A DNA stretch of 21,403 bases. It comes from Bordetella parapertussis. GTDB lineage: Bacteria > Pseudomonadota > Gammaproteobacteria > Burkholderiales > SG8-39. The notes under the pieces are model-generated. The model saw only the letters and a list, made by a program, of their open reading frames with translations. It did no database searches and was not told where the DNA came from. Shown here in pieces: positions 1,188 through 19,636 of this stretch (position 1 is its first letter; the number at the start of each line of letters is the position of its first letter). The DNA lies in assembly GCA_945906975.1 (NCBI GenBank), contig CAMDRY010000015.1, positions 1 to 21,403 of the forward strand, read 5' to 3'. Made by a program: the position numbers and the translations under genes.

Positions 1188-1191
1188 GACG

Positions 1192-1228: not shown

Positions 1229-1373
1229 AACTATTCACTGAACATGGGGGCAAGCCACCTTGTATATCCCTCACTGCAAAGAGAAACTTGTCGAAGCGGG
1301 CTCATTTTCAGGACTTGATCAGCGCTGCCTTAATCTTAAGTACGAACACCGTTTCGCCACCGCTTCGGCCGGC

Positions 1374-3386: not shown

Positions 3387-3444
3387 GCTTATCCCGGCGC
3401 GCCGCGCCGCGGCGTCACCCGCGCAATCGTTTTGAACCGCAGGA

Positions 3445-4378: not shown

Positions 4379-4808
4379 TCAGACTGGCAAGCGGGCCACC
4401 ACGTGCAGACCCGCCACCGGCTTGCCAAGCTCGCTGCGCATCACCATCTCATGCACCTGCGTCAACACAAAGCCGTGCGGCTGCAAGGCTTTTTCAAGCA
4501 ATGCGAGCGAATGGGTATAGCGCCCGCTGACGTGAAAGCCGGACGTCATACCCTCGCCTTTTTCGACGTCAAAAACAAACCGGCCACCACGGCGCAAGCT
4601 ACGCGCAACGCCCGCGACAAGCGCGTCCAGGCTGCCAAAGTACATGAGCACGTTGGCGCAAACCACGACGTCGGCCACGCCCGCGGCGCGCCCGAGGTAC
4701 TCCAGAATCTCGCCCTGCACCAGTTCGTCATAGACGCGTTTTTCAGTTGCCAGCGCCAGCATGCGCGGCGAGAGATCGACGCCGAGCAGACGGCGGGAGA
4801 AGGGACGC
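4379..4808 (-). pseudogene. SAM-dependent methyltransferase remnant, N-terminus lost
   Basis: The frame encodes the C-terminal ~143 residues of a class I methyltransferase, similar to the ones fused to TPR repeats. Visible parts are RRLLGVDLSPRML (start of motif II), an acidic segment ADVVVCANVLMYFG (motif IV region), LRRGGRFVFDVE, and a C-terminal SGRYTHS...GLHVVARLPV. Motif I, the glycine-rich SAM loop that should stand just before RPFSRRL, is missing, as is everything upstream. Homology stops at about 4803-4808, where the opposite strand begins to encode a truncated Bug receptor. A TTG codon could start translation at the edge, but the product would lack the cofactor loop. I therefore call it a remnant; an assembly chimera is the alternative. 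Confidence 0.72.
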
Positions 4809-5192
4809 AATTGTCGAGAACCGTCCAGGCGGCAATTTTGTGATCGCAGCCGAGGCTGTGGCCAAATCCCCGCCCGACGGTTACACGCTGTTCCTCGCGG
4901 TGGACTCGACCATGTCGGTCAATCCGATGCTCTACTCAAAGTTGGTTTCCGCTCGCTGGAGTTCAGCAACTGGACCGGGCTGTTCGCCCCGGCCGGAACG
5001 CCCGACGCAATCATCGAAAAGCGCAACGCCGAAGTCAAAAAAGCAATGAATGATCCGTCGGTGGCCGCCCGGCTCACGCCGACCGGCATTTACCCTAGCA
5101 CCGGCACACCGGAACAATTGCGCACGCTGCGCAAGGGTGATGTCGAACGCTGGAGCGGCGTCATCAAGGCGGCCGGAATCAAACTCGACTGA
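4801..5192 (+). pseudogene. Bug/TctC receptor remnant with lost N-terminus and internal deletion
   Basis: Two pieces of a Bug-family receptor lie in different frames. The first (about 4803-4944) reads DAIVENRPGGN...PPDGYTLFLAVDS...NPMLYSKL, the N-proximal third without signal peptide or first strand. The second (about 4959-5192) reads FSNWTGLFAPAGTPDAIIEK and ends GVIKAAGIKLD before TGA, the normal C-terminus. Compared with a ~300-residue mature receptor, roughly half of the middle is missing and the join shifts the frame, so no functional protein can be made. It begins exactly where the divergent methyltransferase remnant ends. Confidence 0.8.
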
Positions 5193-7199: not shown

Positions 7200-7351
7200 A
7201 GGGGACGTAGTGTAACAGGCCGGATCACCCCGACGCCCCCCGCATCCGCCTTCCGAATGCCCCGGCCAGGCTAAACCCTTGCCTGAAAAGCGCCGCCAGA
7301 CGGCGATTTCCAGTCATCTCGCTATGATCTTCAGCCTTGTATACTGGGGGC
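7200..7351. promoter_or_regulatory. Divergent promoter region lolC / rpfE-like
   Basis: On the minus strand TACACT (7209-7214) lies nine bases before the lolC GTG. On the plus strand TATACT (7340-7345) lies six bases before the ATG of the rpfE-like gene. If these are -10 boxes, both transcripts would start at or within a few bases of their start codons, which fits the lack of a Shine-Dalgarno before lolC (the plus-strand gene has only a weak G-run). No convincing -35 boxes were found. A hairpin cassette (7284-7313) sits between them. Confidence 0.35.
7284..7313. repeat. TGAAAA-N17-TTTCCAG hairpin cassette copy 2
   Basis: The core is the perfect stem CGCCG-CCAGA-CGGCG (7291-7305) flanked by AAAA and TTT. 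It lies between two divergent promoters, where a terminator for the neighbouring genes makes no sense. The adjoining AAACCCTTGCCTGAA (7273-7287) recurs exactly, inverted, at 8431-8445 on the other side of the rpfE-like gene. Confidence 0.6.
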
Positions 7352-8407
7352 ATGCACCTGCAACTTCTCATTCCGGGGCTGGTCTGGCCCGAGGCCATGG
7401 CCTCCTGCCCCCAGCTCCCATCACTGGAAATACTGCTCGCGCGTGGCCGCCGCGCCAGGTCCGTGGCCGCCGACGGAAGGGCATGGCTATACGCCGCCCA
7501 CGACGTGACGCCAGCCGAGGCAACCCGGGCAAGCGACCCAGAACAGCGCGACTGGCCGGCGGCGCCCTTCTCGCTACTCGCCGACGGTGGCGCGCCCGAC
7601 GGCGCCTGTTGGATCTGCGCCGACCCGGTGCACCTCAGGTTGCAGCGCGATGCCTTGCTGCTCGCCGACGCAAGCCTGCTCGGACTCAGGCGCGAGGAAG
7701 CCGACGCGCTGGTCGCGAGCCTCAACGCCCACTTCGCCGTGGACGGCTTTGAATTGCAGGCGCTGTATCCGGATCGCTGGTACGCAAAACTGCAGGCGAT
7801 GCCCGAGCTTGCGACCACGCCGCTGGCCCTCGCCGCCGGACAATCGGTCGATCCCAACCTGCCGCGTGGCGCCGACGCGGCGATCTGGCATGCGCGCATG
7901 AATGAAGTGCAAATGCTGCTGCACAACCACCCGGTCAATGAAGCGCGCGAGGCGCGCAACCAGATGCCGGTCAACAGCCTGTGGTTCTGGGGGGCTGGCG
8001 CGCTGCCTGTACGCGACGAAGACTCCCCCGTAGCGTTTTCGCACGTCTGGGCGACCAACCCGCTAGCACGCGGTCTTGGCCTCTGGAGTGGCGCCCTTGC
8101 GCTCGATGTGCCCACATCCGCTTCCATCCTGCTCGAGGCCGCGCCAGCCACGGGCGTCGGCCTGGTGGTGCTGGACGGGCTCGAAGCGGCGCGCGCCTAC
8201 GGCGATATCGGCGCATGGGAGTCGCGACTGCGCGAAATTGAGTCCGTCTGGCTGGCGCCGCTGGTGGCCGCCTTGCGCGAGGAGCGCATCGGCATGCTCA
8301 GCGTGCACGGCTTTGGCGATGACAAACCCTTCAGCGTGGAGGCCGTGCGCCACGACCTCAAGCGCTTCTGGCGCCGGGTAAAACCTTTGTCCAGGCAACT
8401 GGGCTAG
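7352..8407 (+). CDS. RpfE-type / phosphoglycerate-mutase-like conserved protein
   Basis: A 351-residue cytoplasmic protein resembling the RpfE-type 'regulatory' proteins of Xanthomonas and beta-proteobacteria, often annotated as cofactor-independent phosphoglycerate mutase-like. Visible conserved stretches are LIPGLVWP at the start, LLARGR (28-33), SLLADGG...WICADPVHL (74-95), FAVDGFELQALYPDRWY (128-144), HARMNEVQMLLHNHPVN (180-196) and NSLWFWGAG (208-216). Biochemical function is not established as far as I know. The ATG at 7352 is preferred over an in-frame TTG 15 bases upstream because it follows a -10-like TATACT. It lies 167 bp before recJ on the same strand, a neighbourhood I recall from other beta-proteobacteria. 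Confidence 0.8.
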   Translation: MHLQLLIPGLVWPEAMASCPQLPSLEILLARGRRARSVAADGRAWLYAAHDVTPAEATRASDPEQRDWPAAPFSLLADGGAPDGACWICADPVHLRLQRDALLLADASLLGLRREEADALVASLNAHFAVDGFELQALYPDRWYAKLQAMPELATTPLALAAGQSVDPNLPRGADAAIWHARMNEVQMLLHNHPVNEAREARNQMPVNSLWFWGAGALPVRDEDSPVAFSHVWATNPLARGLGLWSGALALDVPTSASILLEAAPATGVGLVVLDGLEAARAYGDIGAWESRLREIESVWLAPLVAALREERIGMLSVHGFGDDKPFSVEAVRHDLKRFWRRVKPLSRQLG

Positions 8408-8574: not shown

Positions 8575-10422
8575 ATGACTGAAAGACCGATAATGCCCGC
8601 CATGCCGACTTCAAAAATAACCACCCGCCCCGTTCCCGGACGCGCCCGCGACATGCTGGTCGAACAGGGCGTGCATCCGGTGCTCGCCGCCATTTATGCA
8701 TCGCGCGGCGTGCGCTCGCGCGACGAGCTGGAGCGCGAACTGGGCGCGCTGCTGCCGCTCGACCTGTTACTACATGCGGACGATGCGGCCGTGCTGCTTG
8801 CCGATGCCATACGCGACAAAAAGCGCCTGCTCATCGTCGCCGACTACGACTGCGACGGCGCGACCGCCTGCGCCGTGGGCATGCGCGCGCTGCGCGCCTT
8901 TGGCGCCAGCGTGGGCTACCTCGTGCCCGACCGCTTCAAGCTCGGTTACGGACTCACGCCCGAGCTCTCGCGCATGGCCGCGCAAAGCGCGGCCGGCAAG
9001 CCGGACATCCTCATCACCGTCGACAACGGCATCGCCAGCGTCGAGGGCGTTGCCGAGGCCAACCGTCTGGGCATGCAGGTGCTGGTGACCGATCACCACC
9101 TGCCCGGCGCCACGCTTCCCGATGCCGCGGCCATCGTCAATCCGAACCAGCCGGGCTGCCCCTTTCCGAGCAAGTCGATCGCCGGTGTGGGCGTGATGTT
9201 TTACGTCATGCTGGCGCTGCGCGCGGAGTTGCGCAAGCGCGGGTGGTTTGCGGCTGCGGGATCTTCTGGAGCGACGACTTCGGCCACCGCCCCCTCTCCC
9301 CCGGCCCCTCCCCCGCGGGGAGGGGAGGGGAAGTTTGTGACGGCCGATGGCCGTTCCAGTCCTATGGTACGGGAACCGAATCTGGCCGAATTGCTCGATC
9401 TTGTGGCCCTTGGCACCGTCGCCGACGTGGTCAAGCTTGATCCGAACAACCGCATCCTCGTTACCCAGGGTATCAAGCGCATACGCGCCGGGCGCATGCA
9501 GGCCGGGCTCAAGGCCTTGTTCAGCGCATCGGGCCGCGAGTCATCGCGCGCATCGGGCTTTGACCTTGGCTTCATGCTCGGGCCGCGCCTCAACGCCGCC
9601 GGCCGGCTGGCCGACATGAGCCTCGGCGTGGAGTGCCTTGTCACCGATGATCCGGGACGCGCCCTCAACATCGCGCGCGAGCTCGACGCGCTCAACCGCG
9701 AGCGCCGCGGCATCGAGGGGGACATGCAGGCGCAGGCGGAAACCCTGCTACGCGACTTTGTCGCCGCGGACAATTCCAGCATCTGCGTCTACGACCCGGC
9801 CTGGCACCAGGGCGTGATCGGCATTCTCGCCTCGCGCGTCAAGGACAAGCTGCACCGCCCGACGATCGCGTTCGCACGCGGGGAAAACGGCGAACTCAAG
9901 GGTTCGGGACGGTCGATTTCCGCGCTGCACCTGCGCGATGCCCTTGACCTGGTGACCAAGCGCGAACCGGGCATCCTGATCCGCTTCGGTGGCCACGCCG
10001 CAGCGGCGGGCCTGACGCTGCTCGAGGCCGACTACGCGCGCTTCGTGAAAAGCTTCGAGGCCGTGGTGCGCGAAATGGTCGGCCCGGCGCAACTGGTGCG
10101 CACCATCGAAACGGACGGCACGCTGGACACGGGCGACTTCAACCTGGACCTGGCGCAGAAACTGGACCAGGAGGTGTGGGGGCAGGGTTTTCCGCAGCCG
10201 CTATTCTGCGATGAGTTCAAGGTCACCAGCCAGCGCATCGTCGGCGAAAAACATCTCAAACTCAAACTCGCGCGCGGTGGCAAGACCATGGAGGGCATAC
10301 GCTTCAACGCCGCAGAACCCTGCCCGGCATCCGTGCGCGCCGCCTACCGCCTGTCGATCAACGACTACAACGGCGTGCGCAGCGTGCAGGTGATTGTCGA
10401 GGACTGGGAAGCACTGAGCTGA
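8575..10422 (+). CDS. recJ: RecJ single-stranded-DNA exonuclease, with in-frame insertion
   Basis: A 615-residue DHH-family 5'-3' exonuclease acting in recombination and mismatch repair. Motifs in order: ADYDCDG (89-95), TVDNG (148-152), TDHHLPG (172-178), SIAGVGVMFY (201-210), LLDLVALGTVADVV (273-286), GPRLNAAGRL (336-345), a DHHA1 region with GFGGHAA-like RFGGHAAAAG, and a C-terminal OB-like domain. Family members are usually about 560-580 residues. The surplus is residues ~228-265, a Pro/Gly/Ser-rich stretch absent from my recollection of the family, lying between the RGWFA and EPNLAELLDL segments. Outside it all motifs are intact, so the enzyme is probably active. The first ATG has only a weak upstream G-rich site; M10 (ATG at 8602) would also fit homology. 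Confidence 0.93.
   Translation: MTERPIMPAMPTSKITTRPVPGRARDMLVEQGVHPVLAAIYASRGVRSRDELERELGALLPLDLLLHADDAAVLLADAIRDKKRLLIVADYDCDGATACAVGMRALRAFGASVGYLVPDRFKLGYGLTPELSRMAAQSAAGKPDILITVDNGIASVEGVAEANRLGMQVLVTDHHLPGATLPDAAAIVNPNQPGCPFPSKSIAGVGVMFYVMLALRAELRKRGWFAAAGSSGATTSATAPSPPAPPPRGGEGKFVTADGRSSPMVREPNLAELLDLVALGTVADVVKLDPNNRILVTQGIKRIRAGRMQAGLKALFSASGRESSRASGFDLGFMLGPRLNAAGRLADMSLGVECLVTDDPGRALNIARELDALNRERRGIEGDMQAQAETLLRDFVAADNSSICVYDPAWHQGVIGILASRVKDKLHRPTIAFARGENGELKGSGRSISALHLRDALDLVTKREPGILIRFGGHAAAAGLTLLEADYARFVKSFEAVVREMVGPAQLVRTIETDGTLDTGDFNLDLAQKLDQEVWGQGFPQPLFCDEFKVTSQRIVGEKHLKLKLARGGKTMEGIRFNAAEPCPASVRAAYRLSINDYNGVRSVQVIVEDWEALS
9256..9369 (+). repeat. Putative in-frame palindromic insertion within recJ
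   Basis: About 114 bases (38 codons, a multiple of three) separate two segments that are adjacent in ordinary RecJ proteins. The insert contains an exact inverted repeat, CCCCTCCCC-CGC-GGGGAGGGG (9305-9325), preceded by more C/T-rich sequence (9291-9302). Its base pattern is unlike the surrounding coding DNA, and it encodes SPPAPPPRGGEG. The borders are estimated by eye from family knowledge and may be off by a few codons. Confidence 0.6.
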
Positions 10423-10428
10423 GCAGCC

Positions 10429-11283
10429 TCACGAGGCGGCATCGCCATTCGCCAGCCGTCTGACCATTTCGCAGAGCGTGCCGTCAGGCCGTTCAAGCTG
10501 CTCGAGAATACTGAAGTGGTCCGCGCCGGGAATTTCGGTGAATCCACCCGGCAACGCAGCCTTCTCCCTGGCGCCGGCGAATTCAGACGACTGGCGCCGC
10601 AACTCAGGGAGTTCCGCCCCGCCCACAACCACCCGCACCGGAGGACACGTTGCGGGCAGATGAAGCAGGGGCGAGTTGCGTTCCGCCATCGCCGCATCAA
10701 GACCGAGCTTGTCATTGACATAACAATGGCGCACCGGCTCCAAATCGTAGACACCGCTGATGAGTAAGGCTCCGACCACCCCGGGAGAATCGAGCAACAT
10801 CGCGGCAAGCTGCGCCCCTGCCGACCAGCCGCACAAGATCATACTTTCGCGCTTCGCGCCAAGAGCCGGCAATTGCAGCGACAAAAAGGCCATCGCGGCG
10901 CGTGTCTCGGCAACAATCGCGTCCAGGCTCACCTCGGGTGCAAGCGTGTAACCGACCAGGGCGACATTCAGGCCGCGCGCCAGCGGCCCGACAGCAAAAC
11001 AGCTGAAAGCCTCTTTCGCGCGCGTCTGCCAATAACCGCCATGAAAAAAAACAAGTGTCGGCGCCCCCTGCCCCGCCTTGAAAAAGTCGATACGATTTCG
11101 CGGCTGACTGCCATAGCGAAGATCAAGGTGCGCGGGCATGCTCGCGCGCAGCGCAGCACCGCGCTGCTCCCACCCCGCGACGGTTACGCCGCTGTGCGCC
11201 ACTGCCGCCGCGTTGTTATAAGCGGCGTCGAGCTCGGCACGTGAGAGCTCATGCCAGGAACGTGAAGCCGGGCTGGCCATCAT
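10429..11283 (-). CDS. Alpha/beta hydrolase, arylformamidase-like
   Basis: A 284-residue serine hydrolase of the carboxylesterase/kynurenine-formamidase type. It shows the oxyanion motif HGGYWQ (81-86), the nucleophile elbow GWSAG with S154 (152-156), a likely acidic residue in GGAELPELRRQS (around 224-227), and the catalytic histidine in GADHFSIL (H256). Such enzymes hydrolyse N-formyl amides, esters or lactones. It is the last gene of the operon: its ATG overlaps the stop of the reductase gene by four bases (ATGA). It converges with recJ, the stop codons being six bases apart. A second ATG immediately follows the first, so either may be used. No kynurenine-pathway gene lies nearby, so tryptophan breakdown is not implied. 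Confidence 0.88.
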   Translation of the reverse strand: MMASPASRSWHELSRAELDAAYNNAAAVAHSGVTVAGWEQRGAALRASMPAHLDLRYGSQPRNRIDFFKAGQGAPTLVFFHGGYWQTRAKEAFSCFAVGPLARGLNVALVGYTLAPEVSLDAIVAETRAAMAFLSLQLPALGAKRESMILCGWSAGAQLAAMLLDSPGVVGALLISGVYDLEPVRHCYVNDKLGLDAAMAERNSPLLHLPATCPPVRVVVGGAELPELRRQSSEFAGAREKAALPGGFTEIPGADHFSILEQLERPDGTLCEMVRRLANGDAAS

Positions 11284-13193
11284 TCGATGCGGCAGGCCAT
11301 GCGATGACCGCTGTGCGTCGCGCCAATGATGCCCTGCATGCCGGCGCTCTCTCCGACGTTAAAACTTACCGGAGCGCATTCCCGCCAGGCCGCCAGAACC
11401 TCGGGTGCCGGCGGCACCGCGCCCTGAGCGATGATAAGGCTATCGACTCGCAGCGCCGTCTGCGTGCCGCCCGAACGCAGGCACACGCCACCACCATCCC
11501 CTACAACCACTTCACAACCAAAGCGCACATCAACGCCAAGCCTTGTCAGCGCTGGTGGAATGACGATGCGATCGACGATATTGACGTCCTCGCCGAAACT
11601 TGACGCAACATCGGCGAGTATGATCGTGCGTCCGGACATGGCGAGATGCCAAGCCGCTTCAGCGCCGCGCTTTTGCGCGCCAACAATCAGCACTCGCCGA
11701 CCCAGCCGATCGGGCTGCGACAACGCGGATAGCACGTCCATGACGGGTGAAGTTAATCCGGAAAACGGTGTCAGCGGCCACCGCGAACCGAGCGCGAGCA
11801 CCAGGGCATCGGCACGCACTTCAGAGGGAGAAACCTCGCATCCCAGCCGTAGCTGCACACCGGCACGCTGCAGGGCGTTCTCGTAAAAGCGCAACAGGCG
11901 CGGCAGCGTGCGCTTGAACGGCAACGCTGCGGCAACGCGCAGCTGGCCTCCAATTTGCGCGCCACGGTCATAAAGAACAACGCGATGACCGCGCTCGGCC
12001 GCACTCAGCGCAGCCTGAATACCGGCAGGGCCGGCGCCGACAACGGCCACCTCTCGCTTGCGACGCGGCGGCGGGACATACTCGTCCTCGCGTCCGGTCC
12101 GCGGATTGATCGCACACAGTGCCCGCGCGCCGCTTTGTTCGCGCTGAAGGCAGGTATTGCAACGTATGCAGGGTCGAATTTCATCCGTTCTTCCCCCGAG
12201 CAGTTTCTCCGGCAAGTCCGGGTCGGCAAACAAGGGGCGCGCCTGCGATATAAAATCCGCGTCACCATCGCGCACAATAGATTCGGCAAGGTCCGGGTCG
12301 TGAATGCCGCAGGAGGCGATGACGGGTACGCCACTCCCCTCGCGGATGGGCCTTGCGTAGGATACGAACGGGCCCTCTTCCAGGTACATCGGAAGAACAC
12401 GTTTCTCCATCGCACGGTAGGTGCCGGCCGAAATGTGGAATAAATCGACGCCCGCCGCAGCAAGCGCCTTGGCCACGACAGCATAGGCTTTGATATCCAG
12501 ACCGCCCGGGAGTAGATCCTCGCCGTTGATTCGGAAACTGAGCAGCCGATTCGGGCCCAGTTGCTCTCGAACAGCCCGTATGGCCTCGATCGGAAATTTC
12601 AGTCTTGCATCGAAGGAACCACCGTATTCGTCAGTACGCAGGTTGGTCGCGGGCGACAAAAAAGTGTTGAGCAGATAACCATGGGCGCCGTGCAGCTCCA
12701 CCAGATCAAAACCCGCCTGAACCAGACGGCGCGTAGCCTCACCATGGTCGACAACCAGCTGCCTGATCTCCGCAACGGTGATCTCCTGTGGTACGCGTTT
12801 GCCCTCCATCCACGGTATGGGCGAGGGCGCGAGCATCGGCGGATCGGGAATGACGCGCTGGCTGCCGCAGTGCCCCAGTTGCAAGCCGGCGACCGCGCCC
12901 TCCGCCTTGATCGCCTCGGCAAGGTCGGAGAGGCCCGGAATCATCAGGTCATTGTGTGCACCCAACTCGGCATGAAAAGCCCTGCTGCCCAAGGCATCCA
13001 TGAACGTAAGTTCGGCGATAACAAGGCCCGCACCGCCGCGCGCCCTCGCGCGATAGTATTCGACCGTCTGTCGCGTGACGCTGCCATCCGCCGCGGCGTA
13101 CATGGCACACATCGGCGCCATGACCATGCGGTTGCGAAAAGCAATGCCACGCAGCGTCAAGGGCTGCGAAAGCGCGGGGAAAGCCACAGACAC
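11280..13193 (-). CDS. Old yellow enzyme / [4Fe-4S] / FAD fusion reductase (second copy)
   Basis: A 637-residue enzyme of the 2,4-dienoyl-CoA reductase / enoate reductase family. The FMN barrel covers about residues 1-335, with RNRMVMAPM (20-28), QLGHCG (105-110), HGAHGYLLNTFLSP (168-181) and NLRTDEYGG (184-192). The iron-sulfur ligands C342, C345, C348 and C360 follow (C-x2-C-x2-C-x11-C). The remainder is an FAD/NAD(P) domain with VVGAGPAG (384-391) and GGQLR. H168/H171 keep the usual H-x-x-H active-site pair, unlike the paralogue at 1374-3386. It probably reduces a conjugated double bond of a pathway intermediate. The start is GTG (13191-13193), four bases after the aldolase stop. It overlaps the hydrolase start by four bases. 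Confidence 0.92.
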   Translation of the reverse strand: MSVAFPALSQPLTLRGIAFRNRMVMAPMCAMYAAADGSVTRQTVEYYRARARGGAGLVIAELTFMDALGSRAFHAELGAHNDLMIPGLSDLAEAIKAEGAVAGLQLGHCGSQRVIPDPPMLAPSPIPWMEGKRVPQEITVAEIRQLVVDHGEATRRLVQAGFDLVELHGAHGYLLNTFLSPATNLRTDEYGGSFDARLKFPIEAIRAVREQLGPNRLLSFRINGEDLLPGGLDIKAYAVVAKALAAAGVDLFHISAGTYRAMEKRVLPMYLEEGPFVSYARPIREGSGVPVIASCGIHDPDLAESIVRDGDADFISQARPLFADPDLPEKLLGGRTDEIRPCIRCNTCLQREQSGARALCAINPRTGREDEYVPPPRRKREVAVVGAGPAGIQAALSAAERGHRVVLYDRGAQIGGQLRVAAALPFKRTLPRLLRFYENALQRAGVQLRLGCEVSPSEVRADALVLALGSRWPLTPFSGLTSPVMDVLSALSQPDRLGRRVLIVGAQKRGAEAAWHLAMSGRTIILADVASSFGEDVNIVDRIVIPPALTRLGVDVRFGCEVVVGDGGGVCLRSGGTQTALRVDSLIIAQGAVPPAPEVLAAWRECAPVSFNVGESAGMQGIIGATHSGHRMACRIE

Positions 13194-13197
13194 GCGG

Positions 13198-14103
13198 CTA
13201 ACCGAGCTTCAGCTCTTCAGCTTGAATCTTGTCCACCACCAGCTTGAGGTCGGCGAGTCTTTGCGGCGAGAGCCCAAGGATGGGCGCACGCGCCGGACCC
13301 GCACTCTGCCCGGCAAGCGTCATTGCCTCCTTGATGACCACCGGGAATGAACCCCAGGCCCAGGCGGCCCGCAAAGGGGCGAGCAGGTCGTTGATACGAC
13401 CGGCCTCTTTCCAGTCGCCTTTTTTTGCTGAATCGTAAAGTCGCAACACCAGCTTGGGAAAAACGTTGGCCGCCGGCGAAATGGTGCCCGTACCGCCGTG
13501 CACCAGCATCGAAAGGAACACCGTGTCTCGCCCCGAGAACAGCAGCGACTTGCGGTCGGTGAGCAGCAGGTATTCGACCGCCTGCGTCAGATCACCGTTG
13601 GAGTCCTTGACGCCGCAGATGTTCTCGGCGGCCTTCATGCAACGAACCAAGGTTGGCGGCAGCACGTTAACACTGGTGCGTGGCGGGTTGTTATAGAGCA
13701 TCACCGGCAGCTTGGTCGCCTTGGCTATCGTGGTGTAGTGAGTCACCAGTTCGTCCTGGCTTGGCTGGGCAAAATACGGCGTGATCACCAGAGCGAGGTC
13801 GACGCCGATGGCTTCGGCAGCCTGCGTCAGCTTGATCGCGCCGCGCGTGGTAACGGCACCGGTGCCGGCGTAAATCGGCACGCGGCCGTTCACCGCCTCG
13901 ACAGTGATCTCAAGCAGCCTGACATGCTCGTCGTATTCGAGCGAGAAAAACTCGCCCTGGCTCCCCGCCACAGAAATACCGTGCAAGCCCTTGCCTATGT
14001 ACCACTCTATCAACTCGACCACGCGTACTTCATCGATACGCTGGTCGGCGGTAAACGGCGTCGCCATCGCGGGAATAACGCCGTGGAATTTTTGCAGGTT
14101 CAT
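13198..14103 (-). CDS. DapA-family (dihydrodipicolinate synthase-like) aldolase
   Basis: A 301-residue class I aldolase of the DHDPS / N-acetylneuraminate lyase superfamily. The Schiff-base lysine is K166 in CGVKDSNGD. Y137 and R142 lie in LYNNPPRT, and the oxoacid-binding loop reads GSQGE (47-51) where many members have GTTGE or GSTGE. These enzymes make or break a bond next to pyruvate. Within this operon a catabolic lyase releasing pyruvate, or a hydratase-aldolase, is more likely than lysine synthesis; that is inference. GAAGGA lies a few bases before the ATG and supports the start. It lies 56 bp after the ABC ATPase gene, with a small hairpin in the gap. Confidence 0.92.
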   Translation of the reverse strand: MNLQKFHGVIPAMATPFTADQRIDEVRVVELIEWYIGKGLHGISVAGSQGEFFSLEYDEHVRLLEITVEAVNGRVPIYAGTGAVTTRGAIKLTQAAEAIGVDLALVITPYFAQPSQDELVTHYTTIAKATKLPVMLYNNPPRTSVNVLPPTLVRCMKAAENICGVKDSNGDLTQAVEYLLLTDRKSLLFSGRDTVFLSMLVHGGTGTISPAANVFPKLVLRLYDSAKKGDWKEAGRINDLLAPLRAAWAWGSFPVVIKEAMTLAGQSAGPARAPILGLSPQRLADLKLVVDKIQAEELKLG

Positions 14104-14126
14104 TGGTCCTTCATCCTCTCAAGGGT

Positions 14127-14140
14127 GGGCCGCGAGGCCC
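14127..14140 (-). other. Intra-operon hairpin
   Basis: A perfect 5-bp stem (GGGCC/GGCCC, four-base loop) lies between the ABC ATPase stop and the DapA-family ATG. It may affect mRNA stability or partial attenuation within the operon. It lacks a uridine tract and is not a convincing terminator. Confidence 0.3.
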
Positions 14141-14159
14141 GAAACAAGGCGAAACCGGC

Positions 14160-14930
14160 TCAGATCACGCCCATCATGCGATTCAACTCCAGTACATGTT
14201 CGGTAAAACCGGGCAATGCGCGCGTAACCTGGGGGTCGCGCGGGTGCGGAAACTCGATGCTGATGTCGGCGACGATGCGACCGGGCCTGTCGCTCATCAC
14301 AAGAATGCGGTCGGACAGGAAAACCGCCTCTGCGATGCTGTGCGTAATCAGGATCACCGTCTGCTTTTCCTGTTCCCACAAACGCAACAGTTCGACATTC
14401 AGCTGGTCGCGCGTCAAGGCATCGAGTGCGCCAAATGGTTCGTCAAGCAACAACACCTGCGGCCGCAGAATCAGGATCTGCCCGAATGCCGCGCGCTGGC
14501 GCATGCCACCGGACAACTGGTGGGGATAGGAATTGCAAAAGGGCGCGAGCTTCAGTACATCGAGAATTTTCGAAGTGCGCACGGCAATATCGGCAGAGGA
14601 GATACCACGGACCTCGGCCGCAAGACGGATGTTAGCCTCCACCGTGAGCCAAGGCAGCATATTGTGCGTCTGGAAGACAATACCAACATCCGGCGAAGGG
14701 GTAAGCTGCCTGCGCCCCAGGACATCTATTTCTCCGCCCACGTCCGGCGTATAGAGCCCGCCAATCATGCGCAGCAGCGTGCTTTTGCCGCAGCCGCTGG
14801 GGCCCAGGACAGAGACAAATTGCGCGCGCGGTACCTCGAAGGAAACCCCCTCCAGCGCCCTGGTACCTTCGTCAAACGTCTTGGCGGCGGTGCGTACCGA
14901 AATCGCCGCCCGCGCTTCTGTCAATGGCAT
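14160..14930 (-). CDS. ABC importer ATPase, SsuB/TauB/NrtD type
   Basis: A 256-residue ATP-binding subunit of a nitrate/sulfonate/taurine-type importer. Walker A is GPSGCGKST (43-51), the Q-loop glutamine is Q87, the signature is LSGGM (139-143), Walker B is LLLDEP (160-165) followed by FGALD, and the switch is THS (H197). The sequence TPSPDVGIVFQTHNMLPWLTV is typical of this subclass. Its ATG shares one base with the TAA of the preceding VOC gene (TAATG), so translation is coupled. Partners are the permease at 15373 and the binding protein at 16696. The subfamily imports small anionic or aromatic solutes; the substrate here is unknown. Confidence 0.94.
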   Translation of the reverse strand: MPLTEARAAISVRTAAKTFDEGTRALEGVSFEVPRAQFVSVLGPSGCGKSTLLRMIGGLYTPDVGGEIDVLGRRQLTPSPDVGIVFQTHNMLPWLTVEANIRLAAEVRGISSADIAVRTSKILDVLKLAPFCNSYPHQLSGGMRQRAAFGQILILRPQVLLLDEPFGALDALTRDQLNVELLRLWEQEKQTVILITHSIAEAVFLSDRILVMSDRPGRIVADISIEFPHPRDPQVTRALPGFTEHVLELNRMMGVI

Positions 14931-15331
14931 TATTTTTTCGAGCCTACCCAGCCGTTGTGGGAGATGTCGAAAATGATGCCGTTGGGATCACGGTATTTCT
15001 TCTCGTAGTAGAGCGATTCCTTCTCGATCGGCAAATCGAGAAAAAAGCTACCGCCGTTGTCTTCTATGGATTTTCCCTGCGCCTCGAGGTCATCGACCCA
15101 AAATCCGACGTGATGAACACCGACATAATCCTTCCCGCGCTCCTTGCCAGCCGCCTCATCGGTTTTGTAGTTGAGCAGCGCCAGACACATGGTACCGTCC
15201 GTGAGGTACACGCCACTGGCGATGGGCGACTCGGTCCTGCCCGCCTCGGTCATGCCGAAGGTTTTCATGTAGAACTTGGCGGCTTCCTCCGGATCGGGTA
15301 CGGCCATTGCGATATGACGAAGCTTTGCCAT
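14930..15331 (-). CDS. VOC-family protein (glyoxalase/dioxygenase fold)
   Basis: A 133-residue single-domain vicinal-oxygen-chelate protein. It has H6 in the first strand (KLRHIAMAVPD), H73/H74 in VGVHHVGFWVDD, and a C-terminal YRDPNGIIFDIS. In that last motif the usual metal-binding glutamate of DPxGNxxE appears as aspartate (D122). The metal site may therefore differ from glyoxalase I or extradiol enzymes, with isomerase or lyase roles also possible. AGGAG eight bases before the ATG supports the start. It sits between the permease and the ATPase genes, and such interleaving of enzyme and transporter genes argues for a common substrate. Confidence 0.88.
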   Translation of the reverse strand: MAKLRHIAMAVPDPEEAAKFYMKTFGMTEAGRTESPIASGVYLTDGTMCLALLNYKTDEAAGKERGKDYVGVHHVGFWVDDLEAQGKSIEDNGGSFFLDLPIEKESLYYEKKYRDPNGIIFDISHNGWVGSKK

Positions 15332-15374
15332 GCGTGTGACTCCTGGTTATAAATATGAACGGCGGACAGCTGTC
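15332..15374 (-). promoter_or_regulatory. Possible internal regulatory element
   Basis: The 41-bp gap between permease and VOC genes contains a perfect 10-bp palindrome, GACAGCTGTC (15365-15374, running into the permease stop), and an AT-rich stretch CATATTTATAAC on the minus strand. CTGACA resembles a -35 box, but spacing to a -10 is not ideal. An internal promoter is possible, not shown. The gap also carries the AGGAG ribosome site of the VOC gene. Confidence 0.25.
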
Positions 15375-16140
15375 AGAATGCGCGCCACCAGACTCTACGC
15401 GCCAAAAGCTCGATCAGCATGTAGAGCACGCCGACAAGAACAGAAATCGCCAGCAAAGCCGCGAATACCAGGTCTGTTTTCGCATTGGCATTGGCGAGCA
15501 GGATCAAATTTCCGAGCCCCTTCTCAGAACCGACAAACTCACCGGCAATTGCTCCTATCACCGCGAGCGGCATCGCCATTTTGCAGCCATCCATGATGAC
15601 CGGCAGCGCACTGGGCACGCGCAGGCGGCGAAACATGGTCCATGGAGAGGCGCCGATGGCGTGAAAGTGTTCGATGAGGTGGGCCGGCGTACCGGCCAGA
15701 CCACCCATGGTTGAAATCACCACGGGGAAGAACGCGAACAGGAAGGCCATGAGCACCTTGGACGAGGTTCCATACCCGAACCACACGACCAGCAATGGCG
15801 CGAGGGCGATTTTCGGCAGTCCCTGAAAGATTACGACCAATGGATAGAACATTCGCCTGAACAAGGGTGAAGTAAAAATAGCCAAGCCCAGCGCAAGCCC
15901 CCCGCCCACGGCCAAGAGATATCCGAGGATGACCTCCCAGGCGGTCACCATCGACTCTCGAAACAGCAGATCGATATTGTTCCAAGCAGTCTGCATTATC
16001 TGCGACAAGGGCGGCAGGAGATATCGCTTGATCTGGAACAGGTCGACCGCCTTCTCCCACAGCAAGGCCACCACGGCGAACGCTACCAGCGGATCGATAA
16101 TGCTGCGCGAAACACCCAGAAACCTTGGCGGTTGCGGCAT
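15373..16140 (-). CDS. ABC importer permease, SsuC/TauC type
   Basis: A 255-residue inner-membrane permease of the binding-protein-dependent (BPD_transp_1) family with about six hydrophobic segments. The cytoplasmic coupling loop is recognisable as EHFHAIGASPWTMFRRLRVPSALP-like sequence near residues 158-180. FYPLVVIFQGLPKIALAPLLVVWFG-like sequence before it matches nitrate/sulfonate/taurine permeases. It pairs with the ATPase at 14160 and the binding protein at 16696. It starts six bases after the stop of the upstream VOC gene, indicating co-transcription and probably coupled translation. Confidence 0.93.
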   Translation of the reverse strand: MPQPPRFLGVSRSIIDPLVAFAVVALLWEKAVDLFQIKRYLLPPLSQIMQTAWNNIDLLFRESMVTAWEVILGYLLAVGGGLALGLAIFTSPLFRRMFYPLVVIFQGLPKIALAPLLVVWFGYGTSSKVLMAFLFAFFPVVISTMGGLAGTPAHLIEHFHAIGASPWTMFRRLRVPSALPVIMDGCKMAMPLAVIGAIAGEFVGSEKGLGNLILLANANAKTDLVFAALLAISVLVGVLYMLIELLARRVWWRAF

Positions 16141-16146
16141 GGCGGC

Positions 16147-16686
16147 CTACTTTTTGCCGTCCGGACGCGGACCCCACTCTGGGGGGGGCACGAGAAAGCG
16201 CTTGAAGTGCCACTGATCGAAGCCCTCAATATCATTGGGCCAGACCTGGGGGGCATGCACCTCCCCCTTTGGAATCTGCACCATGTCGCAATAAAACTCG
16301 ACGTAGTTGCCGTCAGGATCCTTGAACACCAGGAATACGTTCTCACCCGGGCCGTGCTTACCGATGCCGCGGACGATCTCGATATTTTTTTCCTGCAAAA
16401 AGCGCCCCATCACCTCGACCTCGTCCAGGGAGGCCATTTCGTAGGAGAAATGCTCAAGGCCGGGCCGCCAAGGACGGTAGGTGTCATTCGCGGCCGCCTC
16501 GCCCGGCGGTATCTGTGACAGTGCGAGATCGTGGTGATCAACGCTGCTGCGCAGGAATACCATCTGGTCGGAAATCCAGTCCGATACATCCAATCCGACG
16601 ATCTCAGTGTAGAACTTCACCGACTGCTGGATATCCCGCACGTTCAGCACAAGATGGCCTAGCCGACGTGGTTTTGGTCGGTCCAT
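16147..16686 (-). CDS. VOC-family extradiol-dioxygenase-like protein
   Basis: A 179-residue protein with a complete extradiol-type metal triad: H11 (RRLGHLVLNV), H79 (GLEHFSYEM) and E130 (DPDGNYVEFY). It also has HHDLAL (51-56) and KHGPGENVF (110-118), segments common in type I extradiol ring-cleavage dioxygenases. An Fe(II)-dependent cleavage of a catechol-like intermediate is the best guess. Single-domain VOC proteins also include isomerases and lyases, so this is not certain. A C-terminal tail after residue 140 (VHAPQVWPNDIEGF...) is rich in Trp and Pro. An AAGGCG-like ribosome site lies just before the ATG, nine bases after the binding-protein stop. Confidence 0.87.
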   Translation of the reverse strand: MDRPKPRRLGHLVLNVRDIQQSVKFYTEIVGLDVSDWISDQMVFLRSSVDHHDLALSQIPPGEAAANDTYRPWRPGLEHFSYEMASLDEVEVMGRFLQEKNIEIVRGIGKHGPGENVFLVFKDPDGNYVEFYCDMVQIPKGEVHAPQVWPNDIEGFDQWHFKRFLVPPPEWGPRPDGKK

Positions 16687-16695
16687 GGCATCGCC

Positions 16696-17688
16696 TTACT
16701 TGAGGAACTCATTGGAAAACACATCCTCTGCGCGCACCTTGCCTTTGAGGTCATAGGCCTTGTCGACAAAGGAAATGGTGGCGCGAATGCGGTCATCACG
16801 GATAAAGCCGAGGCCGTTTTGCTTGACCTGCGGATCCTGGATCAATTCACCGATCTCCTTGATCTGCTGCAAAGCGATGGCGCGGTCCACAACCGGGAAC
16901 ATTTTCACGAGTATGTCGGCGGCTTGGTCCGGATTTGCGATGGCGAACTCGAATCCGCGGTAAGAACTGCGCAGGAACTTGCGCACCATGTCGGGCTTGG
17001 CCTTGATCAGCGCTTCAGAGGCGGCAAAGCCATTGCCGTAAGCATTGAGGCCGTAGTCGGCGTAATCAAACCACGCAACGTTAAGACCCGCGGCGGCGGC
17101 CGTGCGCTGCGTCACCACGCGATCGCTGCCCTTCCAGCACTCGACCAGGTCAATTTTTCCCTCGACGAGGGAGCCGGAGATCACCGCCGGATCCAGGCGC
17201 ATCAATTTGATGAAATCGCGCGGCTTGTTATTAAGTTCCAGCCATGCCGGTACAACGTTGTGCACAGGCGATGCCGAGCCACCCCCGAGAGCGCGACCCT
17301 TTAGGTCATCAAGCACCTTGGGCTGCATGCGGCTAGTGACCCAGCAAATGGCACCCGGCCATTTGGTGTTGATCGCGCCGATCATCTTGATTTTGCCACC
17401 GTTGGAACGGTTTAGAACCAGGCTGATCGGGTCGACATAACCGAACTCGAACTGGCCCTGATCCAATTCGTTCGCAGTACGATTGCCACCGTAACCACGG
17501 ATGATATTCACCTCCATGCCCACTTCCTTGAACCAGCCACGCTCTTGCGCAACGATCACGCCGATCGAACTGCCCTGCGGCAGCCAGGCCATGTTGTAGG
17601 TGACTTTTTCCTGTGCGAGCGCCTGGCCCGCCAAAAAACCCAAACCAGTCACCAACGAGGCAACAAATCCAACAAGACTACGGTTCAT
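16696..17688 (-). CDS. ABC importer substrate-binding protein, NMT1/SsuA/TauA type
   Basis: A 330-residue periplasmic binding protein. It has a clear signal peptide, MNRSLVGFVASLVTGLGFLA followed by GQALA, cut about residue 25. The NMT1-like core follows: NMAWLPQGSSIGVIVAQERGWF (mature start), a GGNRTANELDQGQFEFGYVDP segment, and the usual two-lobe pattern to the C-terminus. The ATG at 17686-17688 is chosen because GGGAGAAAG precedes it and the signal peptide begins there; the open frame 26 codons upstream has no homology. It delivers the solute to the permease and ATPase encoded further down the operon. The ligand is not predictable; known relatives bind sulfonates, nitrate, pyrimidines or aromatic acids. 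Confidence 0.92.
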   Translation of the reverse strand: MNRSLVGFVASLVTGLGFLAGQALAQEKVTYNMAWLPQGSSIGVIVAQERGWFKEVGMEVNIIRGYGGNRTANELDQGQFEFGYVDPISLVLNRSNGGKIKMIGAINTKWPGAICWVTSRMQPKVLDDLKGRALGGGSASPVHNVVPAWLELNNKPRDFIKLMRLDPAVISGSLVEGKIDLVECWKGSDRVVTQRTAAAAGLNVAWFDYADYGLNAYGNGFAASEALIKAKPDMVRKFLRSSYRGFEFAIANPDQAADILVKMFPVVDRAIALQQIKEIGELIQDPQVKQNGLGFIRDDRIRATISFVDKAYDLKGKVRAEDVFSNEFLK

Positions 17689-17716
17689 TACTTTCTCCCG
17701 AATAAAAAACAGACAG

Positions 17717-18664
17717 TCATATTTTTTCAGCGGCCACCGGATTGCGCAGCGACCCGATTTTCTCAAGTGTAGCCTCCATCACATCGCCATTCTTGAGGTA
17801 AATCCCGCGCCCCATGCCAACACCTGCGGGCGTGCCCGTGGCAATGACATCGCCAGGCTCAAGGGTGACTATGGTCGACAGATAGGCAATCTGCTCGCGC
17901 ACCGTCCAAATCATGTTCTTGGTCGAATCGTCCTGCATGCTCTTGCCGTTCACCGTAAGTTGCATGCGCAGGTCCTGCGGGTCCTTTATCAGCCAGGAGG
18001 GCACGATCCAGGGCCCGAAAGGCGCGAAGGTATCGTGGCATTTGCCCTGAAACCAGTCGAACTTGAACGGATAGTCGGAGCGCATGTTCAGGTCACGCGC
18101 GGACACATCGTTAACAATGGAGTAGCCGGCGACGTAATCGAGGGCCTTTTCCACTGAAACACGACGGGCTCGCTTGCCGATCACCGCCGCCAGCTCCACC
18201 TCCCAGTCGAGCATCTTGGTTTCGGCCGGCTTGCGCACCGTTTCGCGCGGACCAATGACGGTGTTTTGCAGCTTGAGGAACATGTAAGGCTTGCTGTCGC
18301 CCTTGGCCGCGAGCACGGTTGTCATCTCATTGGCATGTTCGATAAAGTTTGAAGCAGCGCAGAATATGCGCGTCGGGCGATAGGGGGCCATGGCGATCTT
18401 GTCGCCCGCCCCGACCGCCTTTAGCTTACCTGACAACGCGAGCTTGGCGATTGCCGGACCAGCCTTACGCAGCACCGGGCCAGCCGCCCTCCAGTCGCTC
18501 ATGATGGCCTCGACGCCACCGGTGAACCACTCGGCCTTCATGCCGGTGGTTTTTGCCGCCTTGGCGGCTGCCTTCAGGTCGTAGAGTTTGCCTTCAACGA
18601 CAACGGCGGGAACAATAGCTCCCTTGCTTTTGTAGGTGGCAAGTGCGAACCAGGTCATAGTCAT
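17717..18664 (-). CDS. Fumarylacetoacetate-hydrolase-family protein
   Basis: A 315-residue FAH-fold enzyme. Metal ligands are E155 and E157 in LDWEVELAAVIG and D186 in NDVSARD. The catalytic-lid segment reads ASNFIEHANE (104-113), with KLQNTVIGP (131-139) and GTPAGVG (277-283). Family members hydrolyse C-C bonds of acylpyruvates or decarboxylate/isomerise ring-fission products. It is the first gene of the nine-gene operon, directly behind the predicted GntR-controlled promoter. Two ATGs (residues 1 and 3) are possible starts; GGAAG upstream serves either one. The family call is firm; the substrate is inferred only as a ring-cleavage product of the pathway. Confidence 0.93.
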   Translation of the reverse strand: MTMTWFALATYKSKGAIVPAVVVEGKLYDLKAAAKAAKTTGMKAEWFTGGVEAIMSDWRAAGPVLRKAGPAIAKLALSGKLKAVGAGDKIAMAPYRPTRIFCAASNFIEHANEMTTVLAAKGDSKPYMFLKLQNTVIGPRETVRKPAETKMLDWEVELAAVIGKRARRVSVEKALDYVAGYSIVNDVSARDLNMRSDYPFKFDWFQGKCHDTFAPFGPWIVPSWLIKDPQDLRMQLTVNGKSMQDDSTKNMIWTVREQIAYLSTIVTLEPGDVIATGTPAGVGMGRGIYLKNGDVMEATLEKIGSLRNPVAAEKI

Positions 18665-18720: not shown

Positions 18721-18740
18721 GCTTTTTTCTGTGTATACAC
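18712..18740. promoter_or_regulatory. Twin TGTATnCA operator candidates for the GntR regulator
   Basis: TGTATGCA (18712-18719) and TGTATACA (18732-18739) lie 20 bp apart, about two helical turns. The second is the core of a perfect palindrome, GTGTATACAC (18731-18740). FCD-type GntR regulators typically bind TGTATACA-like sites. The first site overlaps the predicted -35 box, so binding would block RNA polymerase. Confidence 0.6.
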
Positions 18741-18862: not shown

Positions 18863-19636
18863 CTAGCTGCGCGTACCGCGTACCAAAAGACGCGGCTTGC
18901 CTGTCTTGTTTTTTCTTGCCTGACCAGCAGGGAGACCGCGCAACAGCAAACGCTCGTCAGTCGACCGGCCTTCGTTGCCGGCCATCCCGCCACCATGCTG
19001 TTTTTCGAAATACTCGATAACATTGGTTGCACTGCTTGCCGTGTGCGCGCACATAGCATCGAAAGCGGCGCCGGCATCAGCGCGAAGTATGGCTTTGGTC
19101 ATGATCTCGTGCTCAGCCACAGAAGTCTGCAGCCGGTCGCCCGTATTAAAAAATTCCTGAGACCGGAAAGGCTCGAGCCGCTGCCGCAGATTTGCCGCAA
19201 GGGCATGCAAGTTGCGATTTCGCGCCCCCATGTAAATGGCCTGATGGAAACTTTCGTTGAGCTCCGCGTAACTATCGGCATCGCCATCCAAGACAGCCTT
19301 TCGGGCGCGGCTGTGGATAAGTTCGATCTGCTTCTTTTCCGCCATCCCTGCGCGAAGAGCACATAGTTTGGCGCAAAGCCCCTCGACCTCACTAGCCGCC
19401 TCGAACAAATCGAGCAGCCCGGCAAGATCGATGGTCGCCACAGAAAACCCCCGGCGTGGTTGTGAATCGATCAGCCCGGTGGCAGCCAATTCACGCAAGG
19501 CGTCCCGCACCGGGCTGCGCGAAACTTTGAAACGTTTGGCTAAAACGATCTCCTCGAGTTTGGCGCCCGGCTTCAGGATGCCATCGACAATATCCCTGGC
19601 AAGGCGTTGGGAGATTTTCTGTGAAAGCGTACTCAT
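18863..19636 (-). CDS. GntR-family transcriptional regulator, FCD subfamily
   Basis: A 257-residue DNA-binding regulator. The winged helix-turn-helix covers residues ~5-70, with LAKRFKVSRSPVRDALREL (32-50) as the recognition region. The FCD ligand domain spans ~75-212, and metal-ligand histidines are H131 (NESFHQAI), H176 (VAEHEIM) and H198 (CAHTA); the usual aspartate is replaced by N127. A basic 40-residue tail follows the domain. It most likely controls the operon starting at 18664 from the twin sites at 18712-18740, responding to a carboxylate or pathway intermediate. No ribosome site is visible before the ATG, so the transcript may be leaderless or continue from dsbB, 44 bp upstream. Confidence 0.92.
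   Translation of the reverse strand: MSTLSQKISQRLARDIVDGILKPGAKLEEIVLAKRFKVSRSPVRDALRELAATGLIDSQPRRGFSVATIDLAGLLDLFEAASEVEGLCAKLCALRAGMAEKKQIELIHSRARKAVLDGDADSYAELNESFHQAIYMGARNRNLHALAANLRQRLEPFRSQEFFNTGDRLQTSVAEHEIMTKAILRADAGAAFDAMCAHTASSATNVIEYFEKQHGGGMAGNEGRSTDERLLLRGLPAGQARKNKTGKPRLLVRGTRS

What the first reader, a model, noticed from the sequence alone, without database searches (positions are those of the whole stretch)
10429..18664. Nine-gene GntR-linked uptake and degradation operon with no recognised named pathway
Seen: nine same-strand genes with gaps of 4-56 bp or overlaps (TAATG, ATGA). They encode FAH hydrolase, binding protein, VOC, permease, VOC, ABC ATPase, DapA-type aldolase, OYE/FAD reductase and an arylformamidase-like hydrolase. 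Enzyme and transporter genes are interleaved, so one substrate is likely shared. Known family chemistry suggests ring cleavage (VOC with H11/H79/E130), C-C hydrolysis (FAH), pyruvate-releasing aldol cleavage (DapA), C=C reduction (OYE) and ester/formamide hydrolysis. Inference: import and catabolism of an aromatic or unsaturated cyclic, possibly N-containing, compound. There is no ring hydroxylase or CoA ligase, so either the imported compound is already hydroxylated or activation is encoded elsewhere.
Basis: partly seen in the sequence, partly recalled or inferred. Interest (0 to 1): 0.72.

Follow-up and report, generated by a model that had tools for sequence, protein, structure and literature searches.

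The report
Kynurenine-linked aromatic acid uptake operon
The nine genes are a real uptake-and-breakdown operon whose counterparts in other bacteria often sit beside, and in a few loci seem to share a switch with, genes for breaking down the tryptophan product kynurenine, so it probably handles a related aromatic acid that has not been identified.

Summary
Nine same-strand genes (10429-18664) lie behind a GntR/FCD regulator gene, with gaps of 4-56 bp or overlaps, between recJ and dsbB/prfB. A capped genome scan gave 43 close relatives of VOC1, the putative ring-cleaving enzyme; most lie among the same FAH, transporter, GntR, VOC2 and DapA genes. OYE was found beside none of them; three of seven window-clade loci carry a nitroreductase instead. 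The 'no recognised pathway' can be narrowed. In 16 of 48 relative loci the module lies among kynurenine/3-hydroxyanthranilate genes. 3-Hydroxyanthranilate dioxygenase occurs in 37 of 39 module-bearing genomes against 19 of 300 drawn from one order. A palindrome TGTATACA occurs 64 times in the 48 loci against 1.3 expected, mostly at module genes and, in three loci, at the 5' end of kynureninase; the window has GTGTATACAC 66 bp before its first gene. My reading: import and oxidative breakdown of a kynurenine-related aromatic acid, perhaps xanthurenate. The link is weaker for the window's own clade (4 of 6 genomes; no kynurenine gene set beside its modules). The substrate is unproven; limited paper searches found no characterised counterpart.

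The parts
18863..19636 (-). GntR family regulator with FCD domain, putative repressor of the operon
   Evidence: Pfam GntR 64.1 and FCD 75.7 bits; GntR gene near the module in many relatives
18731..18740 (.). Perfect palindrome GTGTATACAC, putative GntR operator, 66 bp before the FAH start codon
   Evidence: its core TGTATACA is expected 0.025 times in the window; 64 sites against 1.3 expected in 48 related loci
17717..18664 (-). FAH-superfamily C-C hydrolase or decarboxylase
   Evidence: Pfam FAA_hydrolase 250.8 bits; H110, E113, E155, E157, D186, K208 conserved in at least 90% of 41 aligned sequences
16696..17688 (-). NMT1/SsuA-type periplasmic substrate-binding protein
   Evidence: Pfam NMT1 112.8 bits; start ATG read
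16147..16686 (-). VOC1: single-domain extradiol-type dioxygenase candidate
   Evidence: Pfam Glyoxalase 69.4 bits; H11, H52, H79, H111, E130 in 36 of 36 aligned sequences; sequence and Foldseek neighbours include extradiol dioxygenases
15373..16140 (-). ABC transporter permease
   Evidence: Pfam BPD_transp_1 102.3 bits
14930..15331 (-). VOC2: small VOC protein nearest to methylmalonyl-CoA epimerases; isomerase or epimerase candidate
   Evidence: Pfam Glyoxalase 51.2 bits; PDB 1jc4 E 1e-8
14160..14930 (-). ABC transporter ATPase (taurine/nitrate type)
   Evidence: Pfam ABC_tran 94.7 bits; NCBIfam neighbours
13198..14103 (-). DapA-type class I pyruvate lyase/aldolase with altered dihydrodipicolinate synthase relay residues
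   Evidence: Pfam DHDPS 254.6 bits; alignment; subfamily signature
11280..13193 (-). OYE/FadH-type FMN-FAD reductase, not found beside the module in relatives
   Evidence: Pfam Oxidored_FMN 224.9 bits; PDB 1ps9 E 1.1e-81
10429..11283 (-). Alpha/beta serine hydrolase (HGG oxyanion motif, S154, H256)
   Evidence: Pfam Abhydrolase_3 49.3 bits; PDB 9n8r E 1.1e-54, kynurenine formamidase 4e11 E 6.1e-21; conserved in at least 85% of 26 aligned sequences

Best explanation
A GntR-controlled operon for uptake and breakdown of an externally supplied aromatic acid of the kynurenine group, most likely a quinoline-2-carboxylate such as xanthurenate. Proposed working: the binding protein, permease and ATPase import the anion; GntR leaves GTGTATACAC when inducer is present; VOC1, a one-domain 2-His-1-Glu metal enzyme, oxidatively opens the (hetero)aromatic ring; FAH cuts a C-C bond next to a 2-oxo acid; the alpha/beta hydrolase and VOC2 process ring-fission intermediates; the DapA-type enzyme and an FMN reductase (OYE here, nitroreductase in several relatives) deal with the small 2-oxo-acid fragment. 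In relatives the aromatic part probably enters the 3-hydroxyanthranilate meta pathway. Shown by computation: gene set, conservation, recurring palindrome, neighbourhood and genome-level link. Inferred: every chemical step, the substrate, the operator's function, and that the window's host has the lower pathway.
For: Neighbourhood: 16 of 48 loci carry at least two of the families kynureninase, 3-hydroxyanthranilate dioxygenase (HAO), ACMSD-like amidohydrolase, semialdehyde dehydrogenase, RidA, hydratase/decarboxylase, HOA aldolase, acetaldehyde dehydrogenase (representatives identified). In L040 and L041 FAH, SBP, VOC1 and transporter genes run on the same strand into these genes. Genomes: HAO in 37 of 39 module-bearing genomes against 19 of 300; control PcaH over cut-off 20 of 39 against 38 of 300 (at E 1e-30: 23 of 39, 59 of 300). 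In the even draw of 399 genomes 4 have VOC1, and these 4 have HAO. HAO is more constant than kynureninase (30 of 39) or tryptophan dioxygenase (32 of 39 at E 1e-30, 26 over cut-off). Regulation: TGTATACA 64 sites against 1.3, 45 near module genes, 18 near porin, LVIVD, LysR or kynureninase genes, 1 near none; it lies at the 5' end of kynureninase in L030, L031 and L034 and in the window. Kinship: the VOC1 tree joins the window to L006 (100/92), six more loci (98/90) and then L031, a locus with HAO and kynureninase (96/61); L031 also holds window-like DapA (60%), VOC2 (68%) and FAH (61%).
Against: No kynurenine or 3-hydroxyanthranilate gene was recognised in the window, and the window clade's loci have none beyond one dehydrogenase or hydratase of the same clusters on L011, L048 and L009. 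HAO is in 4 of its 6 searched genomes, in two of those (G001, G335) away from recognised lower-pathway genes, and the HAO regions of all four have no TGTATACA site. One genome (G005) holds both a window-type (L011) and another-type (L047) module, which may mean different substrates. DapA of the window clade is a different subfamily (25-32% identity to the other) and OYE stands where relatives have a nitroreductase. At kynureninase the palindrome lies 17 bp before the called start in L034 but 31 and 44 bp inside the longest open frame in L030 and L031, next to divergent genes, so its target is not certain. VOC1 lacks the usual active-site tyrosine. No chemical route is proven to need all these enzymes. 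Loci are related, so counts are not independent.
Confidence: 0.5

Rival explanations
1. A catabolic operon for an unrelated mono- or bicyclic aromatic acid; the kynurenine link reflects large, catabolically versatile genomes, and the window clade uses the shared transporter/VOC1/FAH core for another compound.
For: PcaH, a general aromatic-degradation marker, is also enriched (20 of 39 against 38 of 300 over cut-off); window-clade loci lack a set of adjacent kynurenine genes; G005 carries two module types.
Against: HAO enrichment is much stronger (37 of 39 against 19 of 300), the palindrome lies at the 5' end of kynureninase in three loci, and L031 combines window-like genes with HAO and kynureninase.
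Confidence: 0.27
2. The operon is a composite: an inherited GntR-to-ATPase uptake/ring-cleavage unit with a DapA-OYE-hydrolase tail acquired separately, so the substrate or fate in the window's host differs from all relatives.
For: In the closest relative L006 the recognised module genes end after the ATPase; GC is 0.54-0.59 for GntR to ATPase against 0.60-0.63 for DapA to hydrolase; OYE is not found beside the module in relatives.
Against: DapA of 66-72% identity follows the ATPase in L007, L008, L009, L011 and L082, with a nitroreductase further on in L007, L008 and L082 and a hydrolase (28-38% identity) in L007 and L008, so much of the tail looks ancestral and chiefly OYE is new. L006 may be an incomplete or reduced copy.
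Confidence: 0.15
3. A sugar-acid or dicarboxylate pathway: FAH as a 2,4-diketo acid hydrolase and DapA as a keto-deoxy acid aldolase, with VOC proteins as isomerases and no ring cleavage.
For: FAH aligns well with L-2,4-diketo-3-deoxyrhamnonate hydrolase (E 2.9e-48); DapA family members act on keto-deoxy sugar acids (established knowledge). The best structural matches of VOC1 by Z are small VOC proteins of other functions.
Against: VOC1 keeps the metal triad and two further histidines aligned with extradiol dioxygenases; neighbours in many relatives are aromatic ring-cleavage genes.
Confidence: 0.05

Closest known systems
Kynurenine to 3-hydroxyanthranilate meta-cleavage pathway of bacteria (KynU, HAO/NbaC, ACMSD, semialdehyde dehydrogenase, deaminase, hydratase, aldolase)
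   Same: Its genes lie beside, and in L040/L041 apparently in line with, relatives of this module; the palindrome also occurs at the 5' end of kynureninase in three loci
   Different: None of its enzymes was recognised in the window; the module's own enzymes are not part of the textbook route
Type I extradiol dioxygenases (BphC, catechol 2,3-dioxygenase, homoprotocatechuate 2,3-dioxygenase)
   Same: VOC1 metal triad H11/H79/E130 and further histidines align
   Different: One domain of 179 residues; valine at the position aligned with the usual active-site tyrosine; activity unknown
FAH-superfamily hydrolases/decarboxylases (L-2,4-diketo-3-deoxyrhamnonate hydrolase, HpcE, FAHD1)
   Same: Fold family and conserved lid His-Glu pair and acidic ligands (roles recalled)
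   Different: Below the NCBIfam cut-off of each of the seven models matched; substrate unknown
SsuA/TauA/NMT1-type ABC importers
   Same: Binding protein, permease and ATPase of this family
   Different: Below the cut-offs for sulfonate and taurine importers

Membership tests
Type I extradiol dioxygenase (VOC1) | 2-His-1-carboxylate metal triad in a VOC fold | tested here: met
   H11, H79, E130 invariant in 36 of 36 aligned sequences; model of mean pLDDT 77.7 with VOC-fold PDB matches. Other VOC metal enzymes share this
Type I extradiol dioxygenase (VOC1) | Second-sphere histidines (recalled: H195 and H241 of BphC) and tyrosine (Y250) | tested here: inconclusive
   H52 and H111 align with the two histidines; the tyrosine position is V120 in all 36. 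Residue numbers of BphC are recalled
Type I extradiol dioxygenase (VOC1) | O2-dependent cleavage of a catechol or aminophenol | not testable with these tools
   needs an enzyme assay
Extradiol equivalogs in NCBIfam (catechol_2_3, HpaD, biphenyl-diol, HsaC) | Score above curated cut-off | tested here: not met
   60.7 bits or less against cut-offs of 320 or more; the models are for longer, two-domain proteins
4-Hydroxy-tetrahydrodipicolinate synthase (DapA) | NCBIfam dapA cut-off | tested here: met
   233.8 against 206.15 bits
4-Hydroxy-tetrahydrodipicolinate synthase (DapA) | Thr-Thr-Tyr proton relay (recalled T44, T45, Y107) | tested here: not met
   aligned residues are S, Q and F; the same in L007, L008, L009, L011, L048, L082 and L077. 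Schiff-base Lys and active-site Tyr are kept
Kynurenine/3-hydroxyanthranilate catabolic locus | Adjacent kynureninase/HAO/lower-pathway genes | tested here: not met
   none recognised among the window genes scanned; at least two such families in 16 of 48 related loci
Kynurenine-linked GntR regulon seen in relatives | TGTATACA palindrome upstream of module genes | tested here: met
   GTGTATACAC at 18731-18740; binding by GntR not tested
Arylformamidase / kynurenine formamidase (last gene) | Best similarity to formamidases | tested here: not met
   9n8r 'Lipase 1' E 1.1e-54 against formamidase 4e11 E 6.1e-21; NCBIfam HaHSL_fam 172.7 of 320

The most novel reading that the evidence does not exclude
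The module is the unknown genetic basis of bacterial xanthurenate (or 8-hydroxyquinaldate/kynurenate) catabolism: a GntR regulon with its own porins and importer, in which a one-domain VOC dioxygenase and an FAH hydrolase convert the quinoline acid to 3-hydroxyanthranilate plus a 2-oxo acid, feeding HAO. The window carries a variant with an OYE reductase where relatives have a nitroreductase.
Probability: 0.2. Interest if true: 0.72.

Novelty: new variant of a known kind. Interest (0 to 1): 0.5.

Why it matters
Xanthurenate and kindred kynurenines are made by animals, insects and plants, but how soil bacteria remove them is poorly assigned to genes (my knowledge). A module found in alpha-, beta- and gammaproteobacteria, with a recurring putative operator also seen at kynureninase and with 3-hydroxyanthranilate dioxygenase in 37 of 39 searched carriers, gives a short, testable substrate list and an operator for inducer screens. 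It would also give a function to a family of one-domain VOC proteins that sources name only 'catechol 2,3-dioxygenase' or 'VOC family protein'.

Tried and rejected
Filing VOC1 or FAH under a named equivalog: the NCBIfam scores are below cut-off. DapA as lysine biosynthesis: passes the family cut-off, but the relay residues differ. OYE as a conserved core enzyme: rejected. Arylformamidase for the last gene: a lipase matches better. HAO count as proof for the window clade: weakened, because HAO in G001 lies among Rieske-like, luciferase-like and SDR-like ORFs (my reading of their first residues, no family scan), and HAO in G335 and some others lies away from the recognised lower-pathway genes. 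Plasmid searches with OYE and DapA gave nothing at 60% identity or above. I first wrote that the nitroreductases of the two clades are 64-68% identical; a recount gives 47-63% between clades and 59-68% within. Rfam: no match in the window at gathering scores. tRNA scan: none. The promoter scan found fewer promoter-like sites than shuffles (2 against 3.4), so no promoter is claimed; terminator-like sites were 19 against 10.8 and were not followed up. Structure search: Foldseek TM-scores to the extradiol dioxygenases are low (query TM 0.33-0.37), so the fold alone does not place VOC1 among them. Paper searches (listings only, except passages of PMC9891463) showed no characterised cluster in the rows listed; searches returned no paper. 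Most subscription journals are not held, so this is a limited negative. The substrate-route arithmetic (xanthurenate + 2 H2O = 3-hydroxyanthranilate + pyruvate) was considered, but it would need neither O2 nor DapA, so it is not claimed.


Full report
Observation. The window holds nine minus-strand genes at 10429-18664, preceded 198 bp upstream by a GntR/FCD gene (18863-19636) and lying between recJ (8575-10422, + strand) and dsbB and prfB on the other side. The binding-protein gene starts at 17688 (read). No whole genome is held for the window. GC is 0.54-0.59 for GntR to ATPase, 0.60-0.63 for DapA to hydrolase and 0.63-0.68 for the flanking genes tabulated.

Recurrence. A protein search with VOC1 gave 464 homologues (120 listed). 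It gave 63 loci: 43 (L006-L048, 53-75% identity) are close and 20 (22-31%) were dropped. With five plasmid records this gives 48 loci. By mechanical ORF clustering FAH is found in 39, the binding protein in 37, GntR in 37, VOC1 in 35, ATPase in 32, a DapA in 30, VOC2 in 26 and permease in 24 of 48; these are undercounts where a longer overlapping frame was chosen (compare), and some loci are cut by contig ends. Where the binding protein is missing, a TctC-type receptor gene is often present (for example L003, L004, L043). VOC1 is uncommon: 4 of 399 genomes drawn evenly from one order have it.

Kynurenine neighbourhood. The commonest other families were identified from representatives by HMM: kynureninase (TIGR01814, 321.4 bits), 3-hydroxyanthranilate 3,4-dioxygenase (TIGR03037, 256.5), 2-hydroxymuconic semialdehyde dehydrogenase (TIGR03216, 886.4; aminomuconate semialdehyde dehydrogenases are close kin, recalled) and acetaldehyde dehydrogenase (470.2) above cut-off; a 2-keto-4-pentenoate hydratase-like protein just below (333.9 of 350); a DmpG-type HOA aldolase by Pfam; an Amidohydro_2 protein that I take for ACMSD; and a RidA protein that I take for 2-aminomuconate deaminase. 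16 of 48 loci carry two or more of these families, 23 at least one, 6 HAO. In L004 (C. metallidurans CH34) these genes flank the module on both sides; in L040 and L041 FAH, SBP, VOC1 and transporter genes run on one strand into the dehydrogenase, RidA and HAO genes.

Genome association. HAO is present in 37 of 39 module-bearing genomes and in 19 of 300 from a draw of one order. The 39 were chosen for VOC1 and span several classes, so the comparison is not phylogenetically matched. Within the even draw, the four VOC1 genomes G002, G020, G193 and G335 are HAO-positive. As a control, protocatechuate 3,4-dioxygenase beta passes its cut-off in 20 of 39 and 38 of 300: general aromatic capability is enriched, but less. 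Kynureninase is in 30 of 39, tryptophan dioxygenase in 32 of 39 at E 1e-30, 26 over cut-off. For the window's clade alone (G001-G005, G335) HAO is in 4 of 6. In G002 and G005 it sits with a LysR gene and an ACMSD-like or dehydrogenase gene, while in G001 and G335 it sits in other surroundings; G005 also has a second, CH34-type module (L047).

Operator. The window has the perfect palindrome GTGTATACAC at 18731-18740, 66 bp before the FAH start codon; its core TGTATACA is expected 0.025 times in the window. In the 48 loci TGTATACA occurs 64 times in 31 loci against 1.3 expected from dinucleotide shuffles. By nearness to mechanically called 5' ends, 45 of the 64 lie at FAH, 2-hydroxyacid dehydrogenase, VOC2, GntR, hydrolase, nitroreductase, TauE, GST or VOC1 genes, 18 at porin, LVIVD, LysR or kynureninase genes, and 1 at none. 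Kynureninase has one in L030, L031 and L034: 17 bp before the called start in L034, but 31 and 44 bp inside the longest open frame in L030 and L031, whose true starts may be later; a divergent gene lies nearby in each. Loci are related, so the counts show a pattern, not independent events. Within the window clade the site is in the window, L006, L008 and L082; L007, L010 and L011 show TTGCACACAA before FAH instead. The HAO regions fetched from G001, G002, G005 and G335 (L078-L081) have none.

Place of the window. A VOC1 tree of 50 rows joins the window with L006 (100/92), with six more loci (98/90), then L031 on a long branch (96/61; the tool warns that long rows are unsure). L031 combines window-like FAH (61%), VOC2 (68%), DapA (60%) and hydrolase (42%) with HAO, kynureninase and the palindrome. 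The window clade differs from the others by its DapA subfamily. Three of its seven loci, L007, L008 and L082, carry a nitroreductase 47-63% identical to those of 14 other-clade loci. OYE has no counterpart in the 48 loci, and in 19 searched genomes/records its best match by E-value is 37% identical, with 39% the highest in the list.

Mechanism. VOC1: an AlphaFold model of moderate confidence (pLDDT 77.7, 19 sequences) matches VOC folds over residues 9-137. The Foldseek list by E-value is led by 3b59 and homoprotocatechuate 2,3-dioxygenases, with query TM-scores of only 0.33-0.37; the VIA list by Z (14.9 and below) is led by small VOC proteins of various functions, so the fold alone does not show ring cleavage. 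H11, H52, H79, H111 and E130 are invariant in 36 of 36 aligned sequences and align with metal ligands and histidines of BphC (BphC residue roles recalled), but the active-site tyrosine is valine. FAH keeps the lid His-Glu pair and acidic ligands (roles recalled from FAHD1). DapA keeps the Schiff-base lysine but not the dihydrodipicolinate synthase relay. In relatives a TPP enzyme, an aspartate-dehydrogenase-like protein or a 2-hydroxyacid dehydrogenase stands in place of, or beside, DapA, families that act on 2-oxo or amino acids; from this I infer, without proof, that a small 2-oxo acid is released. Xanthurenate is my best specific guess because it would connect kynureninase, HAO and an 8-hydroxyquinoline-like iron-binding substrate. 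PMC9891463 (passages only) describes xanthurenic acid formed from 3-hydroxykynurenine in insects.

Verdict. The best-supported reading is a kynurenine-linked aromatic acid module; the exact substrate and steps are open, and the link is weaker for the window's own clade than for its relatives. My ten paper searches listed no characterised counterpart, within a library that lacks most subscription journals.

Noticed in passing
window 168-4170, - strand: A second small cluster: TctC-type receptor, another OYE/FadH-like FMN-FAD reductase (about 1374-3368) and a class II aldolase; possibly another aromatic or organic acid utilisation set.
   Followed up: partly
window 4379-5192: What look like remnants of a methyltransferase (4379-4810, -) and of a TctC receptor (C-terminal part only, 4761-5192, +) between the aldolase and lolD.
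   Followed up: no
window 7337-8407, + strand: A 356-residue ORF next to recJ with only a weak, sub-threshold match to a phosphoglycerate mutase family; function unknown.
   Followed up: no
L004:7442-9379, L077:10097-11809 and 13156-14955: Proteins of an LVIVD-repeat cluster (Pfam on one member, L002), beside a porin in L004 and with a TGTATACA site at the start of the second one in L077; role unexplained.
   Followed up: partly
L083:1-5464, L085:9453-12598, L086:9205-10761: HAO genes next to DapA-like genes (with TctC-like genes in L083 and L085, and aspartate-dehydrogenase-like and weakly similar aldehyde dehydrogenase genes in L083), without ACMSD-like, RidA or hydratase matches; may be a different 3-hydroxyanthranilate-type pathway.
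   Followed up: partly
L011 and L047 (both in G005): One Pigmentiphaga genome carries two different types of the module, a natural comparison for substrate divergence.
   Followed up: no
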